From Marinobacterium lutimaris (GTDB lineage: Bacteria; Pseudomonadota; Gammaproteobacteria; Pseudomonadales; Balneatricaceae), in the NCBI RefSeq assembly GCF_900108065.1, contig NZ_FNVQ01000004.1, positions 1 through 64,000 on the forward strand: a stretch of DNA of 64,000 bases, given 5' to 3'. A program made the translations under genes and the position numbers. Numbering within the stretch: position 1 is the stretch's first letter; the number at the start of each line of letters is the position of its first letter. This document shows positions 17,415 through 55,223 of the stretch, one piece after another. The notes under the pieces were generated by a model. The model saw nothing but the letters and a program-made list of their open reading frames with translations. It searched no databases and was not told the DNA's origin.

Positions 17415-18536
17415 TTAACCGCAGTGGAGGCTTTCTTCGTGGTAGCAGGCGCTTTGCTCTTCCGCCGCCAGGTTGTGCAGGTTGCGACGCATGAAGAGCC
17501 CCGGTTTATCCGGCGCAAAGTTCAGGTCTTTCTGCGCCTCGGTATCACTGGTAACGACCTCCAGAATCCACTCCAGCGCTTCTACATCCTCCAGGTAGGC
17601 CTGCTCGGAGGCGGACTTCAGAAACTCATCTGCCTGTGCATCCTCATGCTTGAAGTCGCGAGAGTTAAACCACCAGTAATGGATGCTGTGATTGGTTTCC
17701 GGAGTGATCAGGTGCGTAATATTGAAGCGGTATTTCCCTGGCGCTCCCTCTGCCGGGTCATGATCGATAATCTGGGCAAAGGCCACATGCATCGCCGGTG
17801 AGACGAAACGCGCCTCGGACAGACGGTCCACTTTCTTTTCCATGATCCCTGCGGGAATACCGTAAATTCCTGGCGGTGCAGAGTTCTTCAGCTCACGGTC
17901 GATCACAACCTGATCGCCCTCCTCCCGCACCTTTAGTTTGGAGCGCGCATATTCCGGCGTCCCCACCGTGCCCGGATGGAGAAACGGAAAGTGGGTCTGG
18001 TCCAGCAGATTCTCGTGCATCGCCACATAGTCCGACTTCATGTGGTAATAGCCGGTCACGCTCTTGAACTCACGCCCCTCAAGCCAGTGCGTATCGGGTA
18101 CCTTGCTTTCGTCGGCCAGATCCTTGTCGCCCATCCAGATCCAGATCAGCGGTCCCTTCTCGACCATGGGATAACCGCGCACATTGGCATTGGACGGGGT
18201 TAGCGGCATTGACGGCATATTGACGCAACGACCGGAGGGATCGAACTGCATACCGTGATAACCGCAGACCAGGATATCCCCTTCCAGTTTTCCCTTGGCC
18301 AGCGGAAAAGAGCGGTGCGGACAGCGGTTACGCACTGCCACAGGGCGTCCATCCAGGGTGCGGTACATAGCGACATCAACGCCAAGCAAACGACGGCTGA
18401 TCACCTCACGGCTGACCTCACTGCTGCGCGCAGCCACGTACCAGCAGTTACGCACCAGCGGGGTTTCAGGGTCGGCAAATCCAGTGCTGGCGATCAGGCG
18501 CTCTGCCTGGGTGTTCTGTGCATTTGAAACAGTCAT
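17415..18536 (-). CDS. Second Rieske oxygenase, divergent VanA/LigX-like member
   Basis: A 373-residue Rieske oxygenase. The Rieske motif is CPH (C72, H74) and CGYH (C91, H94). The mononuclear iron motif ENLLDQTHFPFLHPGT differs from the DLTHETYVH type of its neighbour, placing it in another subgroup. This subgroup covers methoxy-aromatic demethylases and related ring oxygenases. The C-terminus carries extra cysteines (SACYHEESLHCG). The start follows GCAGGAG. It is co-transcribed after the reductase 18555-19538, 18 bp away, so the operon contains two reductase/oxygenase pairs with probably different substrates. Confidence 0.9.
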   Translation of the reverse strand: MTVSNAQNTQAERLIASTGFADPETPLVRNCWYVAARSSEVSREVISRRLLGVDVAMYRTLDGRPVAVRNRCPHRSFPLAKGKLEGDILVCGYHGMQFDPSGRCVNMPSMPLTPSNANVRGYPMVEKGPLIWIWMGDKDLADESKVPDTHWLEGREFKSVTGYYHMKSDYVAMHENLLDQTHFPFLHPGTVGTPEYARSKLKVREEGDQVVIDRELKNSAPPGIYGIPAGIMEKKVDRLSEARFVSPAMHVAFAQIIDHDPAEGAPGKYRFNITHLITPETNHSIHYWWFNSRDFKHEDAQADEFLKSASEQAYLEDVEALEWILEVVTSDTEAQKDLNFAPDKPGLFMRRNLHNLAAEEQSACYHEESLHCG

Positions 18537-18554
18537 CTTTCACTCCTGCTTTAT

Positions 18555-19538
18555 TCAGGCGTCAATAACCAGGGTTCCACCCTGAAGTCGCGATACGCAT
18601 AAACAGATGGCATCGCCGCTCGCTTTCTCTTCATCGGAGAGATATCGGTCACGGTGATCGATGGGGGCGGACGAGCTGAGAACCGGCAAGGAGCAGAGCC
18701 CGCACTCGCCGCGACGACAGTCGGACAGCAGGTTCAAACCTGCGGCCTCGGCGGCGTCCAAAATCGAGGTATTGCGACCTACGGCCACACGTATCTCCGA
18801 GTGCTCGAGTACAACTTCGAACGCCTGATCTTCAGCAGCTGCAGCCACACCAAAGCGCTCGCTGCGAATTCTCTCTTCCGGCCAGCCCAGCTCGGCAGCC
18901 GCGGCGTAGGCCGCATTGACCATCGGCTCAGGGCCACAGACATAGGCAATGCAGTTCTCCGGCTGCACAGCCAGCAGCGCCTTGAGGTCCAGGTGATTGA
19001 TCGCCGGCTCCCCACTGAGATGAAGCTCGCCACGTTCGCCAGCCAGAGCAAGGGTTTCCTCAAGGTACGCCATGCTCTCTTCGGTACGCCCGGAGTAGAC
19101 AAAGGCGTAATCTCGCCCCCGACGGGCCAGGCTCTGCAGCATGGAGTAGATCGGTGTGATCCCTATACCGCCGGCAATCAGCAGTATCTGGGAATCGTTG
19201 TGTCCAAGGACAAAGTGGTTCTTCGGCCAGGAGATACTCAACTCTGTCCCCTTCTCCAAATGCTCATGGATAAAGGCCGACCCTCTGGCGCGATCCTCCC
19301 GCTGCACGGCAATGCGATATCGGTTGGCAGGATCCTTCACCATCCGGTCGCCGCCGATCAGCGAGTAATGGCGCACGAAGCGACCCAGTTCGGGCGCTTC
19401 CAGGTGAAGTTCAATGTGGGCACCAGCGTCATATTTCGGCAGGGGATTGCCGTCGATGGATTCGAGCAGGTATTCGCTGATACGGGGAGTGAGATGGCGT
19501 ATCCCAACCACTTTGACCTGTAGTAGCGGGGTGTTCAT
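18555..19538 (-). CDS. VanB-type oxygenase reductase, first gene of the demethylase operon
   Basis: Paralogue of the reductase at 15278-16264. The start MNTPLLQVKVVG at 19538 follows GGAG by 8 nt and gives 327 residues. It has the flavin motif VRHYSLIGG, the NAD-binding domain starting ILLIAGGIGITPIYSML, and the C-terminal [2Fe-2S] motif SDCRRGECGLCSLPV with a last Cys in AICLCVSRL. It heads the leftward operon whose control region (19539-19757) contains three GGATCC-centred palindromes and is shared with the divergent GntR gene. Confidence 0.92.
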   Translation of the reverse strand: MNTPLLQVKVVGIRHLTPRISEYLLESIDGNPLPKYDAGAHIELHLEAPELGRFVRHYSLIGGDRMVKDPANRYRIAVQREDRARGSAFIHEHLEKGTELSISWPKNHFVLGHNDSQILLIAGGIGITPIYSMLQSLARRGRDYAFVYSGRTEESMAYLEETLALAGERGELHLSGEPAINHLDLKALLAVQPENCIAYVCGPEPMVNAAYAAAAELGWPEERIRSERFGVAAAAEDQAFEVVLEHSEIRVAVGRNTSILDAAEAAGLNLLSDCRRGECGLCSLPVLSSSAPIDHRDRYLSDEEKASGDAICLCVSRLQGGTLVIDA

Positions 19539-19570
19539 AAGGTGCAGCTCCAACTTTGACGTTCTTATAA

Positions 19571-20724: not shown

Positions 20725-23472
20725 ATGCGAAACATGCTTCTGGGCGGCAAATTGCTCGCTGTGGAGTTGAAGGACGACTCGATCAGGCTTGATCATCTTC
20801 GCACCGCACTTCAGTACCTCCAACCCGTCTCCGACACCGATTTCAGCCGCCTCTGCGATGGACTGAATCTGTCTGTCGATATTCAGCGCAGCGAGCATTT
20901 CACCACCGCACAGCTTGAAAAAGCCGCTGCCCTGCCGCGCTTACCTTACTCGCCGGATGTGATCGCTCTGCTGGAACGTTTCAAACAGCAGGGTCTGGAT
21001 CTTTCCAGCCAGATCACCGAACCCTATGTAGACCTGAACCAGCGCAAAGGCCGCTACCATGAGGTGGTCGCCGGCGTGGCGGAGCTGCGCGCCCTGTTAA
21101 GCAGCCGTATTTTCGACCAGGATGCAGCCATAGAGGCGGTCAGTGACGCGGTGATGCGGATGAACTGGAGCGAGCTCAGCGAGCGCCCTAACGCGATCTT
21201 CTCGTTTCTGGGACCCGCCGCCACCGGCAAGACCTACATGGCGCAACTGATCGGCCAGGGACTTCAGGGGTACGCACTCCGAGCCTTCGATATGACGCAG
21301 TTCTCCTCCGAAAAGGAAAGCTTTGGCCTGGTCGGCCTGCGCAAGGGTTTCTCCGATGCCACTAGCGGCCAACTGACTGATTTCGTCAAACAGAACCCGC
21401 GCTCTATCCTGGTGTTTGATGAGATAGAAAAGTCGCACACTAAAGTACAGACGGCGCTGCTACGGATGCTGTCGGAAGGTCGCCTGCGCGATGAGTACAC
21501 CGGCGAAGAGATCGACTTCCGCCAGACGATTGTGGTGTTCACCTCCAACCTGGGCAGTAGCATCTACTCCAACCGCGCCTTCGCCGAGCAGGCCCGCCGC
21601 CAGCCACACCAGGCACGGGAACATCTGCTGCAGGCGATCCGCCAGGAAACCAAGATCGAGGATGGCCACCAGGTTGCGGCCATCCCGCCGGAGATGCTGT
21701 CCCGCCTGGCCCAGGGCAGCATCATTCTCTTCAACCGACTAAGCATCGACGCCCTCGCCCGGATAGCCCAGGAACAGATCCAGCTGGAGCGTAAATCCTT
21801 CCAGGAAAAGCTGGGACTGATGGTTGAGTTCCAGCAGCTAGACCTGCTGGCAAAACTGCTGGTGCTCGGCTTCGCCCCGGAGTTTGATACCCGCGCCGTG
21901 AAATCACGGCTTTGCGATCAGGTGTACGATCCGATCACCGACTACCTGCTGGCCCATGCGGATGTTGCAGTGGACAGCGTCGTTCTGACTATCGGCAGCG
22001 ACGCCCAGGAGTTTTTGCAATCCCAGGATATGCAACGCCTGCCCCAGCAGTTGGCCACCAAACATCAGCGTGTTTACTTCCGTCATCAGCTGGCACTTGA
22101 AGGCGCCCAGTTGCATGTCACTCTCACCGATGTGCGGATCGAAAAGCTGGCACGGGGTGAGGATTTCCTTGATGCCTCGGGTATCCAGGTGGATCTGCCG
22201 GAAGTTTCCTTCTCCCAGATTGCCGGTCACGCCCAGATCAAGGCGCGCCTGAGTGAAACGGTCAAGCTGATCACCCGGCGCGAACAGCTCAAGGCGCAGA
22301 ACGTCAGCGTGCCGCGCGGCATGCTGCTGCACGGCGTTCCCGGCACCGGCAAGACGATGCTGGCCAAGGCATTTGCCCATGAGGCGGAACTGCCATTTAT
22401 CGCCTGTGCCGGTAACGACCTGCTGAATGAAGCGTTTATCCGTAAGCTGTTCACCCGGGCGCGGGAGTACGCGCCAGCGATCATCTTTATCGACGAGATC
22501 GACGCCCTGCCGCGCCGCGGCACCGCCGGCGCCCAGGCCGATGCGCTGGTCAACCGGATGCTGATCGAGATCGATGGCTTTGCAGGTGGCGACGATATCT
22601 TCATTATCGCGGCAACCAACCGCAAGGAGCTGATCGACCCGGCACTGCTGCGCTCCGGTCGTATCGACCTGCATTTTGAAGTACCCCAACTGGATAAAGA
22701 GGCACGCCGCTGGTTTATTCAGCGCATGCTGGACCGGCCGCTGTTCAGCAACCAGGAGGACCTGGATCAGCTGGTGATGCTGACCGCCGGTTTCAGCGGC
22801 GCAGACCTGGAAAAGGTCAATCGCGAGGTGGTGCTGCTAGCCCTGCGTGATGGCATCGAGTTGATCGACGCCGAGCTGATCATCGAGCAGATCAACACCC
22901 AGAAATATGGCGCGCCACTAAACCTGGAGGATGGTCATCACCATTTGCAGGAAACCGCTTACCACGAAGCGGCACACGCGGTGATGTCACGGGTGTTGTT
23001 GCCGGAACGGCGTATCGAACAGGTCACCGTTGTCGCCCGCGCCAACTTCCTCGGCATGGTGTCCTACGACAACGAGCAGCAGCACGATTACACGCGCAAC
23101 TTCATGTTCAACCTGACCTGCGTCGCCCTGGCCGGACGTGCAGCACAGATCCGCCGTTTTGGTGAACAGGGACTCGATAGTGGCGCCTCCGGCGACCTCA
23201 AGCAGGCGGCCCATTATGCCTGGCTGGCCATCGCCGAATGGGGCATGGATGAGGCGCTCTACAACCTTGCTATTCCCGAACTGAAACAGCACCTGCAACG
23301 CCTGCCTTTCGCCGCCCAGGTCGAAGAACGGATCAAGCTCTGGCTGGATGAGGCCACCCGCACCACCGCCTCACTGGTTGCAACTCACTGGCAGCAGATC
23401 GAGCGCGTCGCCCAGCAGGTGCTGCGCGATGAAGTCATCGACGCTGCGACTCTCAAACAACTCATGGAGTAA
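20725..23472 (+). CDS. Dual AAA+ ATPase with M41 (FtsH-like) zinc protease domain
   Basis: A 915-residue protein with unusual architecture. Residues 1-150 are a unique N-terminal region. Residues ~150-450 form a ClpA/ClpB-D2-like AAA+ module (Walker A GPAATGKT at 163-170, Walker B with D232-E233, then IEKSHTKVQTALLRMLSEGR and VVFTSNLGS). Residues ~495-735 form an FtsH/Yme1-like AAA+ module (Walker A GVPGTGKT 537-544, Walker B D590-E591, and the arginine-finger/sensor part RSGRIDLHFEVP). Residues ~740-915 are an M41 peptidase with HEAAH (747-751) and the third zinc ligand D824 in GASGDLKQA. All catalytic residues are present. Unlike FtsH, no N-terminal membrane helices are visible. It is probably an ATP-driven protease or disaggregase-protease. 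The next genes may be adaptors and a membrane anchor (inference). Confidence 0.9.
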   Translation: MRNMLLGGKLLAVELKDDSIRLDHLRTALQYLQPVSDTDFSRLCDGLNLSVDIQRSEHFTTAQLEKAAALPRLPYSPDVIALLERFKQQGLDLSSQITEPYVDLNQRKGRYHEVVAGVAELRALLSSRIFDQDAAIEAVSDAVMRMNWSELSERPNAIFSFLGPAATGKTYMAQLIGQGLQGYALRAFDMTQFSSEKESFGLVGLRKGFSDATSGQLTDFVKQNPRSILVFDEIEKSHTKVQTALLRMLSEGRLRDEYTGEEIDFRQTIVVFTSNLGSSIYSNRAFAEQARRQPHQAREHLLQAIRQETKIEDGHQVAAIPPEMLSRLAQGSIILFNRLSIDALARIAQEQIQLERKSFQEKLGLMVEFQQLDLLAKLLVLGFAPEFDTRAVKSRLCDQVYDPITDYLLAHADVAVDSVVLTIGSDAQEFLQSQDMQRLPQQLATKHQRVYFRHQLALEGAQLHVTLTDVRIEKLARGEDFLDASGIQVDLPEVSFSQIAGHAQIKARLSETVKLITRREQLKAQNVSVPRGMLLHGVPGTGKTMLAKAFAHEAELPFIACAGNDLLNEAFIRKLFTRAREYAPAIIFIDEIDALPRRGTAGAQADALVNRMLIEIDGFAGGDDIFIIAATNRKELIDPALLRSGRIDLHFEVPQLDKEARRWFIQRMLDRPLFSNQEDLDQLVMLTAGFSGADLEKVNREVVLLALRDGIELIDAELIIEQINTQKYGAPLNLEDGHHHLQETAYHEAAHAVMSRVLLPERRIEQVTVVARANFLGMVSYDNEQQHDYTRNFMFNLTCVALAGRAAQIRRFGEQGLDSGASGDLKQAAHYAWLAIAEWGMDEALYNLAIPELKQHLQRLPFAAQVEERIKLWLDEATRTTASLVATHWQQIERVAQQVLRDEVIDAATLKQLME

Positions 23473-23479
23473 ACCGGAC

Positions 23480-23986
23480 ATGGCCATCAGCCTTGCCAAG
23501 ATCAAGCAGTACCTGGATGAAGTTGAGCTCAACTACGACGAGCGTGATGAAAACACCCTTGCTGTTGGCTTTTCCAGCGAGGGCAACAAGATCGTGATCG
23601 TTATTCGTCTGATGGAAGAGGGCGAGTTCCTGCAGATGCGTACCATCAAGCACCTCGACGGCCTGGTGGAAACAGCAGACCCGGAAAAGCGCGCAAACCT
23701 GCTCACCTGGATGCTGAACCAGAACTACAGCACCAAAACAGGCGCCTGGGAATATGACCCGGATGATCACGACCACCATATCTCCATCGGCCACGTGATC
23801 GAAGATGGCGACCTGACCAAGAAACAGTTCGTCCGCATGTTGTCGGTCCTGACCAACAGCGCAAAACTGATCCCCGAAATGAAAGAGATTCTCGGCTTCG
23901 GTGAAGAGAGCGTCGATCCAGTGGAACAGAAGCGCCAGGAGCTGCTGGCCCAGCTGCGCGCCCTGGAAGACGGCACCGGCATCTAA
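23480..23986 (+). CDS. YbjN-like small protein 1 of the AAA+ protease operon
   Basis: A 168-residue acidic protein beginning MAISLAKIKQYLDEVELNYD, 7 bp after the protease gene. A longer in-frame start inside the protease gene is unlikely. The predicted order (N-terminal helix, antiparallel strands such as NKIVIVIRLMEEGEFLQMRT, a central helix RANLLTWMLNQNY, strand, then ISIGHVIEDGDLTKKQFVRM) matches the YbjN/type III secretion-chaperone-like fold. A charged C-terminal tail (residues 150-168) is helical. Members of this fold often act as adaptors or chaperones. A substrate-adaptor role for the neighbouring AAA+ protease is my inference. It is paralogous in fold to the next gene. Confidence 0.8.
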   Translation: MAISLAKIKQYLDEVELNYDERDENTLAVGFSSEGNKIVIVIRLMEEGEFLQMRTIKHLDGLVETADPEKRANLLTWMLNQNYSTKTGAWEYDPDDHDHHISIGHVIEDGDLTKKQFVRMLSVLTNSAKLIPEMKEILGFGEESVDPVEQKRQELLAQLRALEDGTGI

Positions 23987-24053
23987 GCCACGGGATTGGA
24001 ATTCAAAGGGAGTCGGTTGGACTCCCCGGTTTTTGCAGAATGAGGAATAAGCT

Positions 24054-24620
24054 TTGGCTACAACGCTAAAGGAGCTGGAAGCGCTGTTCCAGTCGATCGG
24101 CTGGAAGTATGAATCACGCCAGGATAACCCGGACAGTGTCGAAGGCTATCTGTTCTCCTCCTTTCCGACCAAAACCTACCGCGACGCCGATGGCGATTCG
24201 GTGGTGACCTTCGTGTTCAACGTGCAGGAAAAAGGCGAACTGATAAAAATCGTGGTGCCCAGGCTCTACAGCTGCGTCAATCCGCACTTCCGCCGCGCCT
24301 TCTTTGAAGTGGCGATCCGCAAAACCTTCGAGAAGAAACTCTGCTTCTACGACTATGACCATCGCGACGGCGAGATCCGCATGCTGGTCGACCTGCCGCT
24401 GGAAGACACCCAGATCACCGAACGCCAGGTCAAACGTGTCCTGCGCGCCATGCTGATGCATATCGACGGCAACGACGAAGCGGTGCGCGCGGCGGTGGAA
24501 CAGGGCGAACTGCCGTTTATCGACTACAAGGCAGACCTGACCCACGAGATCTCCTCGCTCTCGCCGGATCAGCAGCTTGAACTGCTGGTCGAGATCAAGC
24601 GACGCAACCGGGCCGGATAA
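24054..24620 (+). CDS. YbjN-like small protein 2 of the AAA+ protease operon
   Basis: A 188-residue protein. The only suitable start is TTG at 24054, preceded by GAGGAATAAGC as ribosome-binding site. The N-terminal part LKELEALFQSIGWKYESRQD, followed by beta strands (VVTFVFNVQEKGELIKIVVP) and a helix FRRAFFEVAIRKTFEKK, has the same arrangement as the preceding protein, with a longer C-terminal helical tail (SSLSPDQQLELLVEIKRRN). It lies 67 bp downstream of protein 1 and 5 bp before the next small gene. Its function is unknown. The pairing of two such proteins with one AAA+ protease suggests a hetero-oligomeric adaptor (inference). Confidence 0.78.
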   Translation: MATTLKELEALFQSIGWKYESRQDNPDSVEGYLFSSFPTKTYRDADGDSVVTFVFNVQEKGELIKIVVPRLYSCVNPHFRRAFFEVAIRKTFEKKLCFYDYDHRDGEIRMLVDLPLEDTQITERQVKRVLRAMLMHIDGNDEAVRAAVEQGELPFIDYKADLTHEISSLSPDQQLELLVEIKRRNRAG

Positions 24621-24625
24621 AACAG

Positions 24626-24772
24626 ATGGCGACGAAAAAACGCAAGAACCAGGAGTTCCGCAACTTTACCTCGGGCATTTTTTACTCGCTCTGTATCGCC
24701 CTGGTACTGTTCCTGGCGACGCTGCTGGTACTCAAGCTTGGCCCTGAAATATCGGATCTGGTTACCTTATAG
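24626..24772 (+). CDS. 48-residue single-span membrane peptide
   Basis: A short frame begins ATGGCGACGAAAAAACGC and encodes 48 residues. It has a basic N-terminus (MATKKRKNQEFRNFTSG) and one hydrophobic helix (IFYSLCIALVLFLATLLVLK), then stops at TAG (24770-24772). It overlaps the next coding frame (+1) by 35 bp. Either it is a genuine small membrane subunit, translationally coupled to its neighbour, or it is the first membrane helix of a longer protein separated by a one-base shift. Skipping one T at 24767-24768 would join the two frames smoothly as DLVT-YSRWSGISD. Confidence 0.6.
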   Translation: MATKKRKNQEFRNFTSGIFYSLCIALVLFLATLLVLKLGPEISDLVTL

Positions 24773-25967
24773 TCGCTGGTCCGGCATCAGCGACGCGATC
24801 AACCTGGTAATCGGTCTACCGGTGGCGTTCGCCGGCGCCTACGTGGCGATCTCCATCGCCAGCCGCACCCAGGACCTGTCCGAGAAACAGCAGTCGCAGC
24901 AGGACCACCAGTATTACGAACAGCTGCATGAACAGCTGATCGACAACTACTTCGAGATCAGCCGCGCCGCCGACCGCCTGGTCTCCGCAGCCAACCGTTT
25001 TGAGGAAGCGTTCCACGGCCGCCTGCGCCATGAAACCTCCTCGCGTTTCCGCCTGATGAACTTTATCGATGAGGATCACCGCCGCCGCTATATCCAGGAG
25101 ATGCTGGAAGAGAACCGCGACGGCATCAGCGAAAAGCTCGGCATGCTGCACCAGGAGATCCGTGACCAGATCTACCAGCTGCTCGAAGCGATCGACCTGG
25201 CGTTCAAACATGCCTCGGTGAATGAGACCTGGGAGCTGTCTTCGTCCGATCCCTACTATTACAGCCTGCTGGCCGAAGCCTGCCGACGTAAACTCTGCTA
25301 CGGCGACTTTGACCAGGCCGAGGATGGCCGCGACTGGCTGCTGGAAGCGAAAAACGAGATTCTGGAGCGCCTAGACCTGCACCAGGTTCAGGATGCGATC
25401 ACCAGCGAGCACGACAGCGTTCACCCCCTGCTGCCGTTCTGCCTGTATGTTTCTGAGCTCCAGGACTACAAGCGCCAGGTCGGTCAGGGCGACTGGTATA
25501 TCGAGGTGCTGCTGGCCGGTTACTTCCTGATGACCCACGCCAGCACCCAGGCCACGGATGGACGCAGCTTCTTCAATACCGGCGCCCTGTTCCTGATGGA
25601 CCTGATCTACACCCTGCCCAGAAGCGAACATGTGCGCCTGGCGTTCTCGCGCCGCTACGCCGATACCGAGGCGGTGTTCAACGGTTCTGCCCCGCTCGCC
25701 GCAAGCGCTACCGCCTCCAGCTATGACATCGCCAAGGCGGCCAGCGAGGGGCTGAACTCTACCAGCCAGCATCTGTTCCTGACGCTGTCCCGCAATATCC
25801 AGTTCGACCACTACTCTCCGCGTATCCGCAAGACCCATCTGATGCTGTCGGGACTGGTCGCCCAGGGCGAAGAGGCGGGCAGCAAACTCTCGCTGCTGCA
25901 GATCCACTACGAGCGGCTGCAGCAGGACGACTCGGACAAGTTCGAGATGCAAAAGCAGGAGCGCTAG
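24738..25967 (+). CDS. Membrane-anchored helical protein, last gene of the AAA+ protease operon
   Basis: 409 codons from a TTG at 24738. This start is uncertain: no Shine-Dalgarno sequence is visible, and the TTG lies inside the preceding small gene. One hydrophobic segment near the N-terminus (INLVIGLPVAFAGAYVAISI) is followed by a glutamine-rich, probably coiled-coil stretch (LSEKQQSQQDHQYYEQLHEQ, about residues 48-70), then a mostly helical soluble domain of about 330 residues that I do not recognise. The first methionine is far downstream, after the membrane segment, which supports either coupling or frame fusion with the 48-residue peptide. It may tether or regulate the AAA+ protease (inference). 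Tandem terminators follow. Confidence 0.7.
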   Translation: MALKYRIWLPYSRWSGISDAINLVIGLPVAFAGAYVAISIASRTQDLSEKQQSQQDHQYYEQLHEQLIDNYFEISRAADRLVSAANRFEEAFHGRLRHETSSRFRLMNFIDEDHRRRYIQEMLEENRDGISEKLGMLHQEIRDQIYQLLEAIDLAFKHASVNETWELSSSDPYYYSLLAEACRRKLCYGDFDQAEDGRDWLLEAKNEILERLDLHQVQDAITSEHDSVHPLLPFCLYVSELQDYKRQVGQGDWYIEVLLAGYFLMTHASTQATDGRSFFNTGALFLMDLIYTLPRSEHVRLAFSRRYADTEAVFNGSAPLAASATASSYDIAKAASEGLNSTSQHLFLTLSRNIQFDHYSPRIRKTHLMLSGLVAQGEEAGSKLSLLQIHYERLQQDDSDKFEMQKQER

Positions 25968-25978
25968 CGCCTCGACCG

Positions 25979-26011
25979 AGCGGTACCTCCGTCTAGAGGT
26001 ACCGCTGTTTC
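25979..26011 (+). terminator. Terminator 1 of the AAA+ protease operon
   Basis: AGCGGTACCTC (25979-25989) pairs perfectly with GAGGTACCGCT (25996-26006), an 11-bp stem with a 6-nt loop, followed by GTTTC. It begins 12 bp after the stop codon. Confidence 0.8.
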
Positions 26012-26014
26012 TAT

Positions 26015-26034
26015 AAGCCCGCCCTAGCGGGCTT
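26015..26034. terminator. Terminator 2, bidirectional hairpin
   Basis: AAGCCCGC (26015-26022), loop CCTA, GCGGGCTT (26027-26034), then TTCCC. It stands in tandem with the previous hairpin and could also stop the convergent lysR transcript. The remaining 26035-26259 is AT-rich and shows no gene. Confidence 0.65.
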
Positions 26035-26259
26035 TCCCATGTTTAGCTTTGAGCCGACCAGCATGGCCATGATTTACAGCCAAAACCATACAGGTATCGA
26101 AGCCAGAGCCCAAACAGGCCTCGCGACAAACCCTGAATCCCGACATTTTCGGAATATAATTCAATTAATGGCTGGGTTTTAATTATAAAACCCACACCCT
26201 CAAAGCCAATTTAAATAATTAATAGCACTAACTAAAAATATAATAAAATCCATGTTAAA

Positions 26260-53060: not shown

Positions 53061-54128
53061 ATGTTCCCGAAAAACTGCTGGTATGTCGCTTGTACCCCCG
53101 ACGAATTTGCAGATAAGCCGCTGGCCCGTCAGATCTGCGGCGAACGCATGGCTTTTTACCGCGACGGCGAAGGCAAGGTTGCCGCTGTCGAAGACTTCTG
53201 CCCGCACCGCGGCGCACCGCTCTCCCTCGGTTATGTTGAAGACGGTCAACTGACCTGTGGTTACCACGGCCTGAAAATGGGTCGCGACGGTAAGACCACC
53301 TCCATGCCGAAGCAGCGCGTAGGCGGTTTCCCCTGCGTTAAAAGCTACCCGGTTGAAGAGCGCTACGGCTTTATCTGGGTATGGCCGGGCGATGCTGAAA
53401 AAGCGGACCCGAGCGAAATCCATCACCTGGAGTGGGCGGTCAGCGATGACTGGGCCTACGGTGGCGGCCTGTTCCACATCCAGTGCGATTACCGCCTGAT
53501 GATCGACAACCTGATGGACCTGACCCACGAAACCTACGTGCACTCCACCAGCATCGGTCAGAAAGAGATCGACGAAGCGCCGGTGCGCACCAAGACTGTC
53601 GACGGCGAAGTCCGCACCAGCCGTTACATGGAAGATATCAAGGCGCCGCCGTTCTGGCAGGCCGCTCTGGTAGCCAACGATCTGCCGGCCGACGCCGACG
53701 TGGACCGCTGGCAGGTTTGCCGTTTTACTCCGCCGAGCCACGTTCTGATCGACGTAGGCGTTGCACTGAAAGGTGAAGGCGGCCAGGAAGCACCGGCCGA
53801 CAAACGCGCCAACAGTATCGTCGTTGACTTCATCACGCCGGAAACCGAAACCAGCCACTGGTACTTCTGGGGTATGGCGCGCAACTTCAAGCCGGAAGAT
53901 CAGGCACTGACCGACCAGATTCGCGAAGGCCAGGGCAAGATCTTTACCGAAGACCTGGAGATGCTGGAGCGCCAGCAGCGCAACCTGCTCGAATTCCCGG
54001 AACGCACCCTGCTCAAGCTGGATATCGACGCCGGTGGCGTTCAGGCCCGCCGCATCATCGATCGCATGATCGAGGAAGAGCAGCAGGCGGAACAGGACAG
54101 CAACCTGATCAAGACGGCTTCCGCCTGA
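53061..54128 (+). CDS. vanA: Vanillate O-demethylase oxygenase subunit
   Basis: A 355-residue Rieske oxygenase converting vanillate to protocatechuate plus formaldehyde. It starts MFPKNCWYVACTPDEF after TAGGAG. The Rieske motif CPH (C47, H49) / CGYH (C66, H69) and the mononuclear iron motif DNLMDLTHETYVH are present. It is clearly VanA by its VanR-type operators and the vanB gene downstream. It is closely related to the enzyme at 16275-17336 but lies in a separate transcription unit with another operator type. Confidence 0.94.
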   Translation: MFPKNCWYVACTPDEFADKPLARQICGERMAFYRDGEGKVAAVEDFCPHRGAPLSLGYVEDGQLTCGYHGLKMGRDGKTTSMPKQRVGGFPCVKSYPVEERYGFIWVWPGDAEKADPSEIHHLEWAVSDDWAYGGGLFHIQCDYRLMIDNLMDLTHETYVHSTSIGQKEIDEAPVRTKTVDGEVRTSRYMEDIKAPPFWQAALVANDLPADADVDRWQVCRFTPPSHVLIDVGVALKGEGGQEAPADKRANSIVVDFITPETETSHWYFWGMARNFKPEDQALTDQIREGQGKIFTEDLEMLERQQRNLLEFPERTLLKLDIDAGGVQARRIIDRMIEEEQQAEQDSNLIKTASA

Positions 54129-54202
54129 TCAGCGCCAGTCTGTGCAGTTCCAAAGCAGTCAGCTCCAAGCTATTAAGCGCCAACTTATAACAATAATCCG
54201 GG

Positions 54203-54227
54203 GAGGCGATGCCAGGTGCATCGCCTC
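54203..54227 (+). terminator. Intercistronic hairpin between vanA and vanB
   Basis: GAGGCGATGC (54203-54212) pairs perfectly with GCATCGCCTC (54218-54227), a 10-bp stem with a 5-nt loop. There is no T-run, so it more likely stabilises the vanA 3' end or tunes the vanA:vanB ratio than fully terminates. Confidence 0.5.
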
Positions 54228-54269
54228 TCCTGACAGTTCCGGCCCGCACCTGAGGCCAGGAGAAATGCT

Positions 54270-55223
54270 GTGATCGACGCGAAAGTAACGAAAAAAAGCT
54301 GTGAAACAGCGGATATCTGCCTTATCGAGCTGGCCCGTCCCGACGGTTCTGCTCTCCCCGCCTTCAGTGCCGGTGCCCATATCGACCTGCACCTGGGCAA
54401 TGGACTGATCCGTCAATACTCCCTGTGCAACCACCCCAACGAAGATCATCGCTACGAGATTGCGGTCCTTAACGATCCGGAATCCCGCGGTGGCTCACGC
54501 TTTGTGCATGAAGGCCTGAACGAAGGCGACAGCCTGCAGATCAGCGAGCCGCGCAACCTGTTCCCGCTGGAAGCCAAGGCCGAGCGTCACCTGCTGATCG
54601 CCGGCGGTATCGGTATCACCCCAATCCTCTGCATGGCGGAGCGCCTTGACCACCAGGGCGGCGAGTTCGAGATGCATTACTGCACCCGCACCCCGGAAAC
54701 CACCGCCTTCGTTGAGCGCATCGGCAAGGCTAATTTTGCCAACCGCGTGGAGTTCCACCACAGCCACACCGACAACCCCAGCACCATGGATACCAAGGCG
54801 GTGATGGAAGCCCAGACGGCCGGTACTCACCTGTATGTCTGTGGTCCGAACGGCTTTATGGATCATGTGCTCAATACCGCCCGCGAATGCGGCTGGCCGG
54901 AAGAGCGCCTGCACCGCGAGCACTTTGCCGCCGAAGCGGTAAGTCAGGAAGGCGACACCGCCTTTGAAGTTCAGCTGGCCAGCAGCGGCGATATCATCGA
55001 GATTCCCGCCGACCGCACCGTGCTGGATGTCCTGATGGAGCATGACGTGGATGTGCCCTTCTCCTGCGAAGAGGGCGTCTGCGGCACCTGCGCCGTGCGT
55101 CTGCTGGAAGGCGAGCCGGATCACCGTGACGTGTTCATGACCGACGCAGAGCACGCCGCCAACGAAGAGTTCGCACCTTGCTGTTCGCGTGCAAAGAGCA
55201 AGCGCCTGGTGCTCGATATCTAA
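54270..55223 (+). CDS. vanB: Vanillate O-demethylase reductase subunit
   Basis: A 317-residue reductase for VanA. The GTG start at 54270 is supported by AGGAGA 6-7 nt upstream. An ATG 5 bp before it stops after two codons. Domains are the flavin part with IRQYSLCNH, the NAD part with LLIAGGIGITPILCMA, and the C-terminal [2Fe-2S] with FSCEEGVCGTCAVRLL and the fourth Cys in FAPCCSRAKS. Its iron-sulphur loop (CEEGVCGTC) differs from the CRRGECGLC loop of both reductases at 15-19 kb, so the two loci are separate lineages. Confidence 0.94.
   Translation: MIDAKVTKKSCETADICLIELARPDGSALPAFSAGAHIDLHLGNGLIRQYSLCNHPNEDHRYEIAVLNDPESRGGSRFVHEGLNEGDSLQISEPRNLFPLEAKAERHLLIAGGIGITPILCMAERLDHQGGEFEMHYCTRTPETTAFVERIGKANFANRVEFHHSHTDNPSTMDTKAVMEAQTAGTHLYVCGPNGFMDHVLNTARECGWPEERLHREHFAAEAVSQEGDTAFEVQLASSGDIIEIPADRTVLDVLMEHDVDVPFSCEEGVCGTCAVRLLEGEPDHRDVFMTDAEHAANEEFAPCCSRAKSKRLVLDI

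What the first reader, a model, noticed from the sequence alone, without database searches (positions are those of the whole stretch)
20725..25967. Candidate undescribed proteolytic system: ClpA/B-like AAA+ ring fused to an FtsH-like AAA+-M41 protease, with two YbjN-fold partners and membrane proteins
Seen: one 915-residue chain has two different Walker A/B sets (163-170/232-233 and 537-544/590-591) and an intact M41 zinc site (HEAAH 747-751, D824), but no membrane helix. Four genes follow in the same direction, two of YbjN-like fold and two with single membrane spans, and the unit ends in tandem terminators. Known: FtsH normally has one AAA+ ring and its own membrane anchor, while ClpA/B unfoldases do not carry a protease domain. 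Inference: a double-ring disaggregase-protease, recruited to the membrane by the last genes and fed by YbjN-type adaptors.
Basis: partly seen in the sequence, partly recalled or inferred. Interest (0 to 1): 0.82.

Follow-up and report, generated by a model that had tools for sequence, protein, structure and literature searches.

The report
Clp-FtsH hybrid protease with dedicated partners
A marine bacterium carries one long protein that joins a Clp-type ATP-driven ring to an FtsH-type ring and protease, encoded together with two chaperone-like helper proteins and a membrane protein, and this set recurs as a unit in scattered relatives, so it looks like an undescribed kind of protein-destroying machine.

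Summary
The 915-residue chain (20725-23472) joins a ClpA/B-D2-type AAA+ ring, an FtsH-type AAA+ ring and an M41 protease, with motifs as stated and no membrane helix. It is no assembly error: the order recurs in 13 other loci. Partners are real: protease, second YbjN protein and membrane protein share the same 7 of 116 family genomes; in another order a YbjN-type protein and a similar membrane protein lie divergent from the protease. Deltaproteobacterial forms lack partners and the N-terminal, weakly Clp-N-like domain, suggesting that this domain docks the adaptors. Best reading: a membrane-recruited, adaptor-fed protease in which ring 1 pulls and ring 2 gates M41. Function is inferred only.

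The parts
20725..23472 (+). gene A, 915-aa Clp/FtsH hybrid AAA+-AAA+-M41 protein
20725..21000 (+). N-terminal helical domain (residues 1-92), Clp-N-like by fold (weak)
   Evidence: model block pLDDT 75-92 over residues 1-90; top 21 Foldseek rows are entries on ClpC/ClpB-type N-domains by title, best E 0.14, none at E <= 0.001
21082..21984 (+). ring 1, ClpA/B-D2-type AAA+ (residues 120-420)
   Evidence: TIGR03346 ClpB match 121-425, whole-protein E 9e-41; ClpB and ClpC D2 in PDB
22186..22884 (+). ring 2, FtsH-type AAA without pore loop 1 (residues 488-720)
   Evidence: TIGR01241 match 490-908, 1e-80; pore loop deletion
22948..23463 (+). M41 zinc protease domain, HEAAH 747-751, D824 (residues 742-913)
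23480..23986 (+). gene B, 168-aa YbjN-type protein
   Evidence: one of two other orthologues above the Pfam cut-off
24008..24026 (+). terminator-like hairpin between B and C, possible attenuator
24054..24620 (+). gene C, 188-aa YbjN-type protein (TTG start)
   Evidence: homologous to B (hhalign E 6e-10, probability 96.6)
24626..25967 (+). gene D, about 440-aa membrane protein with two N-terminal spans in relatives, split in the window by one inserted base near 24768 (pieces 24626-24772 and 24738-25967)
25979..26006 (+). terminator-like hairpin
26016..26035 (+). second hairpin with T tail
   Evidence: read by eye

Best explanation
A four-gene, adaptor-fed AAA+ protease. Shown by sequence: chain A carries an N-terminal domain, a Clp-D2-type ring with ATPase motifs intact, an FtsH-type ring with ATPase motifs intact but no pore loop 1, and an intact M41 site; B and C are homologous YbjN-type proteins; D has two N-terminal spans (in relatives) and a large C-terminal part that by the positive-inside rule, judged by eye, should face the cytoplasm. 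Inferred: A forms a hexamer with two stacked rings above the M41 ring; B and C bind unfolded or partly folded client chains and dock on the N-terminal domain, as MecA or ClpS do on ClpC or ClpA (recalled); ring 1 pulls the client (it keeps an aromatic pore residue, F209 here, Y in the second order); ring 2 works mainly as an ATP-driven gate and clamp that passes the chain to M41; D brings the whole to the inner membrane in place of FtsH's own anchor. The hairpin between B and C may lower C and D relative to A and B.
For: Domain order conserved in 13 other loci: 6 of the family, 3 of a second order, 4 deltaproteobacterial; 13 fusion rows fall on one side of a 100/100 branch against 26 FtsH rows. 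A, C and D are found in the same 7 of 116 family genomes and in none of the other 109 at the limits used (E 1e-110, 1e-4, 1e-4); B is beside A in all 7. In a second order A and a YbjN-type protein occur in the same 3 of 247 genomes, with a D-type gene beside them in all 3 (hhalign E 2e-8, probability 95 for C; 7e-7, 92 for D), in a different gene arrangement. N-domain and partners are present together in 10 of 10 gammaproteobacterial loci and both missing from the deltaproteobacterial loci. ATPase motifs of both rings intact in 9 of 9 gammaproteobacterial rows; HExxH and the third ligand D in 13 of 13. YbjN proteins share the class I type III chaperone fold and are proposed to bind unfolded chains (PMC5398634, abstract and passages).
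Against: No biochemical evidence. The N-domain fold match is weak (best E 0.14); Pfam (three sequences) and a sequence profile against the PDB find no Clp N-domain. The model of D failed (mean pLDDT 46.6). No complex was predicted and the fold of B and C was not modelled. Both pore loops are non-canonical, so unfolding may be feeble. In three of four deltaproteobacterial forms the Walker B glutamate of both rings is lost, so the family does not need the ATPases everywhere. In the window strain itself D is frameshifted, by real mutation or sequence error.
Confidence: 0.5

Rival explanations
1. A gated, client-specific proteolytic switch rather than an unfoldase: A cleaves one or a few loosely folded or membrane-associated clients presented by B/C, with the rings acting as nucleotide-controlled gates and no processive threading.
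For: Ring 2 lacks pore loop 1 in 13 of 13 rows and ring 1 has lost YVG; deltaproteobacterial relatives keep the M41 site while the Walker B glutamate of both rings is lost in three of four; FVG is described as FtsH's pore motif for substrate entry (PMC10850787, passages).
Against: In 9 of 9 gammaproteobacterial rows the ATPase motifs, arginine fingers and an aromatic ring-1 pore residue are kept.
Confidence: 0.27
2. An anti-phage or other conflict system: accessory all-or-none gene set with a protease effector, adaptor sensors and a membrane component.
For: Very patchy presence, 7 of 116 and 3 of 247 genomes, 0 of the 7 other genomes of the window's genus; operon G+C 0.588 against 0.551-0.552 in 10 kb on either side, a small difference.
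Against: PADLOC matches at E <= 0.1 are AAA-domain models on A (best IetA, 5e-31; also PDC-M37B, DolB, TRIP13 and others), none on B, C or the pieces of D; neighbours, read by eye, look like housekeeping, transport or catabolic genes; gene C has no match in phage records or viral contigs, and in plasmids one partial Synechocystis match.
Confidence: 0.1
3. An ordinary divergent FtsH paralogue whose neighbours are incidental.
For: Best single family match is FtsH (TIGR01241).
Against: Score 272 against a cut-off of 600; separate clade; no membrane anchor; the genome has a normal FtsH as well; partners recur after gene rearrangement.
Confidence: 0.05

Closest known systems
FtsH (AAA+-M41 membrane protease)
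   Same: AAA ring joined to M41 with HExxH and third Asp; arginine fingers kept in the 9 gammaproteobacterial rows
   Different: no membrane span; an extra Clp-type ring and N-domain in front; pore loop 1 (FVG) deleted
ClpA/ClpB/ClpC (Hsp100)
   Same: ring 1 is of D2 type; N-terminal domain resembles Clp N-domains in fold, weakly
   Different: no D1 ring; protease is M41 in the same chain rather than separate ClpP; pore motif GYVG altered
YbjN / AmyR / DR1245 family
   Same: B and C match Pfam YbjN just below cut-off, one B orthologue above it; B and C homologous
   Different: occur as a pair beside a AAA+ protease, or in the second order as one longer protein whose C-terminal half matches them
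PspA-linked CesT/Tir-AAA+ operons (PMC11237479, passages)
   Same: CesT-type chaperone with AAA+ ATPase and membrane partners
   Different: no PspA or band-7 model among the Pfam families shown for A (25 of 35), B, C or D; AAA+ here is fused to M41; the text held of that paper has no word beginning with FtsH, Clp or YbjN

Membership tests
FtsH | M41 active site HExxH plus third Asp ligand | tested here: met
   13 of 13 rows
FtsH | N-terminal membrane anchor | tested here: not met
   no 19-residue window above 1.6 in the window protein; the NCBIfam FtsH match starts at residue 490
FtsH | FVG pore loop in the AAA ring | tested here: not met
   absent in 13 of 13 fusion rows, present in 26 of 26 FtsH aligned
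FtsH | NCBIfam TIGR01241 cut-off 600 bits | tested here: not met
   271.8 bits
Clp/Hsp100 | D2-type AAA+ with Walker, sensor and arginine-finger residues | tested here: met
   window and 8 other gammaproteobacterial rows
Clp/Hsp100 | N-terminal Clp_N domain | tested here: inconclusive
   Pfam negative in three sequences, profile negative, fold suggestive
Clp/Hsp100 | GYVG pore loop | tested here: not met
   GFSD or GFES (6 rows), TYDD (3), THEG/TSEG/VHDE (4)
YbjN | Pfam PF10722 above gathering score | tested here: inconclusive
   window B 21.3 and C 21.4 against 22; two B orthologues 26.0 and 15.8, two C orthologues 16.6 and 17.8
YbjN | type III chaperone fold and dimer | not tested

The most novel reading that the evidence does not exclude
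A new class of AAA+ protease: a soluble two-ring machine that joins a Clp-type front end to an FtsH-type protease in one chain, with ring 2 stripped of its pore loop so that only ring 1 grips substrate, fed by a dedicated pair of type-III-chaperone-fold adaptors docking on the Clp-N-like domain and anchored through a separate membrane protein.
Probability: 0.4. Interest if true: 0.8.

Novelty: new variant of a known kind. Interest (0 to 1): 0.68.

Why it matters
Known AAA+ proteases either pair Clp rings with a separate peptidase or anchor one FtsH ring in the membrane (recalled). A natural hybrid with conserved loss of the FtsH pore loop would let the roles of ring, pore loop and gate be separated directly, and would give YbjN proteins, whose partners are mostly unknown (recalled), a concrete job as protease adaptors.

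Tried and rejected
Assembly error or chimaera: rejected by homologues. Two membrane genes: rejected. Programmed frameshift in D: thought unlikely, since the six relatives carry D in one frame and I saw no slippery heptamer by eye; not tested further. Clp_N by Pfam and by PDB profile (best hits designed proteins, E 8e-4, taken as chance) negative; fold search suggestive only. Fold of D unusable, so not searched; D profile against PDB gave nothing better than E 0.33. B profile against PDB found no YbjN structure. Pfam on the YbjN-type protein of the second order: of three sequences one shows YbjN at E 0.21, the other rows look like chance. The link rests on hhalign with three to five sequences, and the match is to its C-terminal half only (against B the probability is 64%). 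That its N-terminal half is also YbjN-type is a guess by eye. Hairpin between B and C: shuffle z-scores are mixed, -0.1, -2.2, -1.9, -1.4, +0.4, -2.6, -3.4, and the terminator scans found no clear excess over shuffles (6 against 7.7, 7 against 5.9, 5 against 4.5). Gene C in viral contigs, phages and plasmids (one partial Synechocystis match) gave no further members, nor did residues 1-495 of A in plasmids at E 1e-30.

Limits of the census: genomes are samples, and in the large searches only the best few candidates per genome were scored; the genome-contig scan used two short peptide patterns and did not return the second order, so wider spread is likely. One search gave nearly the same sample as and adds nothing. 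Searches report the same 247-genome draw as far as the listed handles show. A D profile was not run on the second order. In one search one of 7 genomes of the family of G921 had A, G921 itself. Alignment A9 holds 13 of the 14 loci; it leaves out L036/L007, a close relative of L035, whose row also lacks the ring-2 pore loop. The tree tool warned that long branches meet at the fusion/FtsH split.
Full report
What is there. Gene A (20725-23472) encodes 915 residues. NCBIfam and Pfam place a Clp-D2-type AAA+ domain at about 121-425 (ClpB model, E 9e-41), an FtsH-type AAA and M41 over 490-908 (FtsH model, E 1e-80), with M41 at 742-913. Genes B (23480-23986) and C (24054-24620) are YbjN-type: each just misses the Pfam gathering score; of two other B orthologues scanned one passes and one does not, and two C orthologues do not; profiles of B and C match each other (E 6e-10). 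A to B is 7 bases, C to D 5 bases, consistent with an operon. The genome has a normal FtsH besides.

Is it more than chance or an artefact. In 96 related genomes five, own included, have A at full length; in a family census it is 7 of 116, in another gammaproteobacterial order 3 of 247, in a class-wide sample 1 of 369, the window's own genome only, in a phylum-wide sample 4 of 398. Four deltaproteobacterial MAG loci have the same domain order from about residue 106-120 on, at 34-37% identity; one of these (L048) is cut by the contig end. The ring-2/M41 parts of 13 fusions form one side of a 100/100 branch against 26 FtsH sequences; the tool warns that long branches meet there, and the join of the nine gammaproteobacterial rows has only 88/75.

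The partners. C and D are found in exactly the same 7 of 116 genomes as A, next to it and in the order A-B-C-D. These genes are inherited together, so the count is not a set of independent events. The independent argument comes from the second order: there A is transcribed divergently from a 365-369-residue protein, whose C-terminal half matches C (2e-8) and B (6.5e-5, probability 64%), followed by a 452-485-residue protein, with two spans by eye, matching D (6.6e-7); that YbjN-type protein is found in the same 3 of 247 genomes as A. The alignments behind these comparisons hold three to five sequences, so E-values are rough. Neither B, C nor D had a tblastn match in the four deltaproteobacterial loci (E 0.01); in three of them the downstream side is visible. 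A C profile finds nothing in the four genomes, but the tool notes that an empty answer without a genome known to match shows nothing. The same four lack the N-terminal 105 or so residues, and the upstream gaps of 2 to 142 bases leave no room for them.

The N-terminal domain. From its motif spacing I suspected a reduced Clp N-domain before the fold search. The model is good over residues 1-90, and the top 21 Foldseek rows are by title all entries on Clp N-type domains (ClpC, ClpC1, ClpC2, ClpB, or the protease of Corynebacterium in 3fh2, which I take for ClpC; chain identity not checked), though the best E is only 0.14, TM about 0.4, and row 22 onward mixes in histones. Some of these entries are complexes of ClpC with MecA or YjbA; that adaptors dock on the N-domain is otherwise recalled. 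Presence of this domain with the YbjN partners in 10 of 10 gammaproteobacterial loci, and lack of both in the others, is the basis for the docking proposal. It is a correlation over two or three lineages.

The pore loops. Against p97 and FtsH, ring 2 has a six-residue deletion where pore loop 1 (EMFVGVG in FtsH) lies: 13 of 13 fusion rows against 26 of 26 FtsH rows with the loop (p97). Ring 1 has GYVG changed to GFSD or GFES in six of six rows of the window's family, TYDD in three of three of the second order, and THEG, TSEG or VHDE in the four deltaproteobacterial rows. FVG is described as FtsH's substrate-entry pore motif (PMC10850787, passages), and in ClpG the AAA2 pore tyrosine is needed for disaggregation (PMC8024975, passages). 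So if A threads, ring 1 most likely does it. ATPase residues of both rings are kept in nine of nine gammaproteobacterial rows, while L048, L049 and L050 have lost the Walker B glutamate in both rings, L047, L049 and L050 have ring-1 Walker A changes, and L050 one in ring 2; the M41 site is kept in 13 of 13.

A regulatory detail. Between B and C a stem-loop is predicted in seven of seven family operons, with mostly unrelated sequences; in the window, L035 and L039, the three scanned, it scores as terminator-like. Shuffle z-scores are mixed and the scans found no clear excess of such sites. A partial terminator setting A and B above C and D is plausible, not shown.

Known or new. Searches of the open-access library for YbjN with FtsH and AAA, M41 with ClpB and fusion terms (none), PspA/AAA/CesT/M41, FtsH/ClpA/domain fusion, soluble FtsH with two AAA, the two Pfam names together (none) and YbjN with protease adaptors showed, in their listings, no title or abstract start describing such a fusion; listings are capped, and subscription journals and preprints are not held. 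Nearest in print among what I saw is the PspA survey (PMC11237479, passages) with CesT-type chaperones and AAA+ ATPases in membrane operons.

Verdict. A genuine, conserved AAA+ protease architecture with co-inherited partners, for which I found no description; mechanism inferred. New variant of a known kind.

Noticed in passing
24008-24026: Terminator-like hairpin inside the operon between B and C; stem-loops of mostly unrelated sequence are predicted at the same junction in all 7 family operons.
   Followed up: partly
near 24768: One extra base relative to Marinobacterium sediminicola splits gene D; real mutation or sequence error.
   Followed up: partly
L107:4669-8023: Synechocystis PCC 6714 plasmid pSYLA: a C-like domain ends a 774-aa protein, next to another protein that looks YbjN-like by eye, with DUF262, macro-domain and HNH genes nearby; no protease is annotated in the 17 kb shown.
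   Followed up: partly
L048, L049, L050: Deltaproteobacterial fusions without the Walker B glutamate in either ring but with an intact M41 site: possible ATP-independent forms.
   Followed up: partly
L008, L009, L027: An FtsH-like paralogue branch in relatives, separate from the main FtsH in the tree.
   Followed up: no
17415-19553 and 53061-55223: By eye, two Rieske oxygenase plus reductase pairs, each near a GntR-type regulator; not scanned.
   Followed up: no
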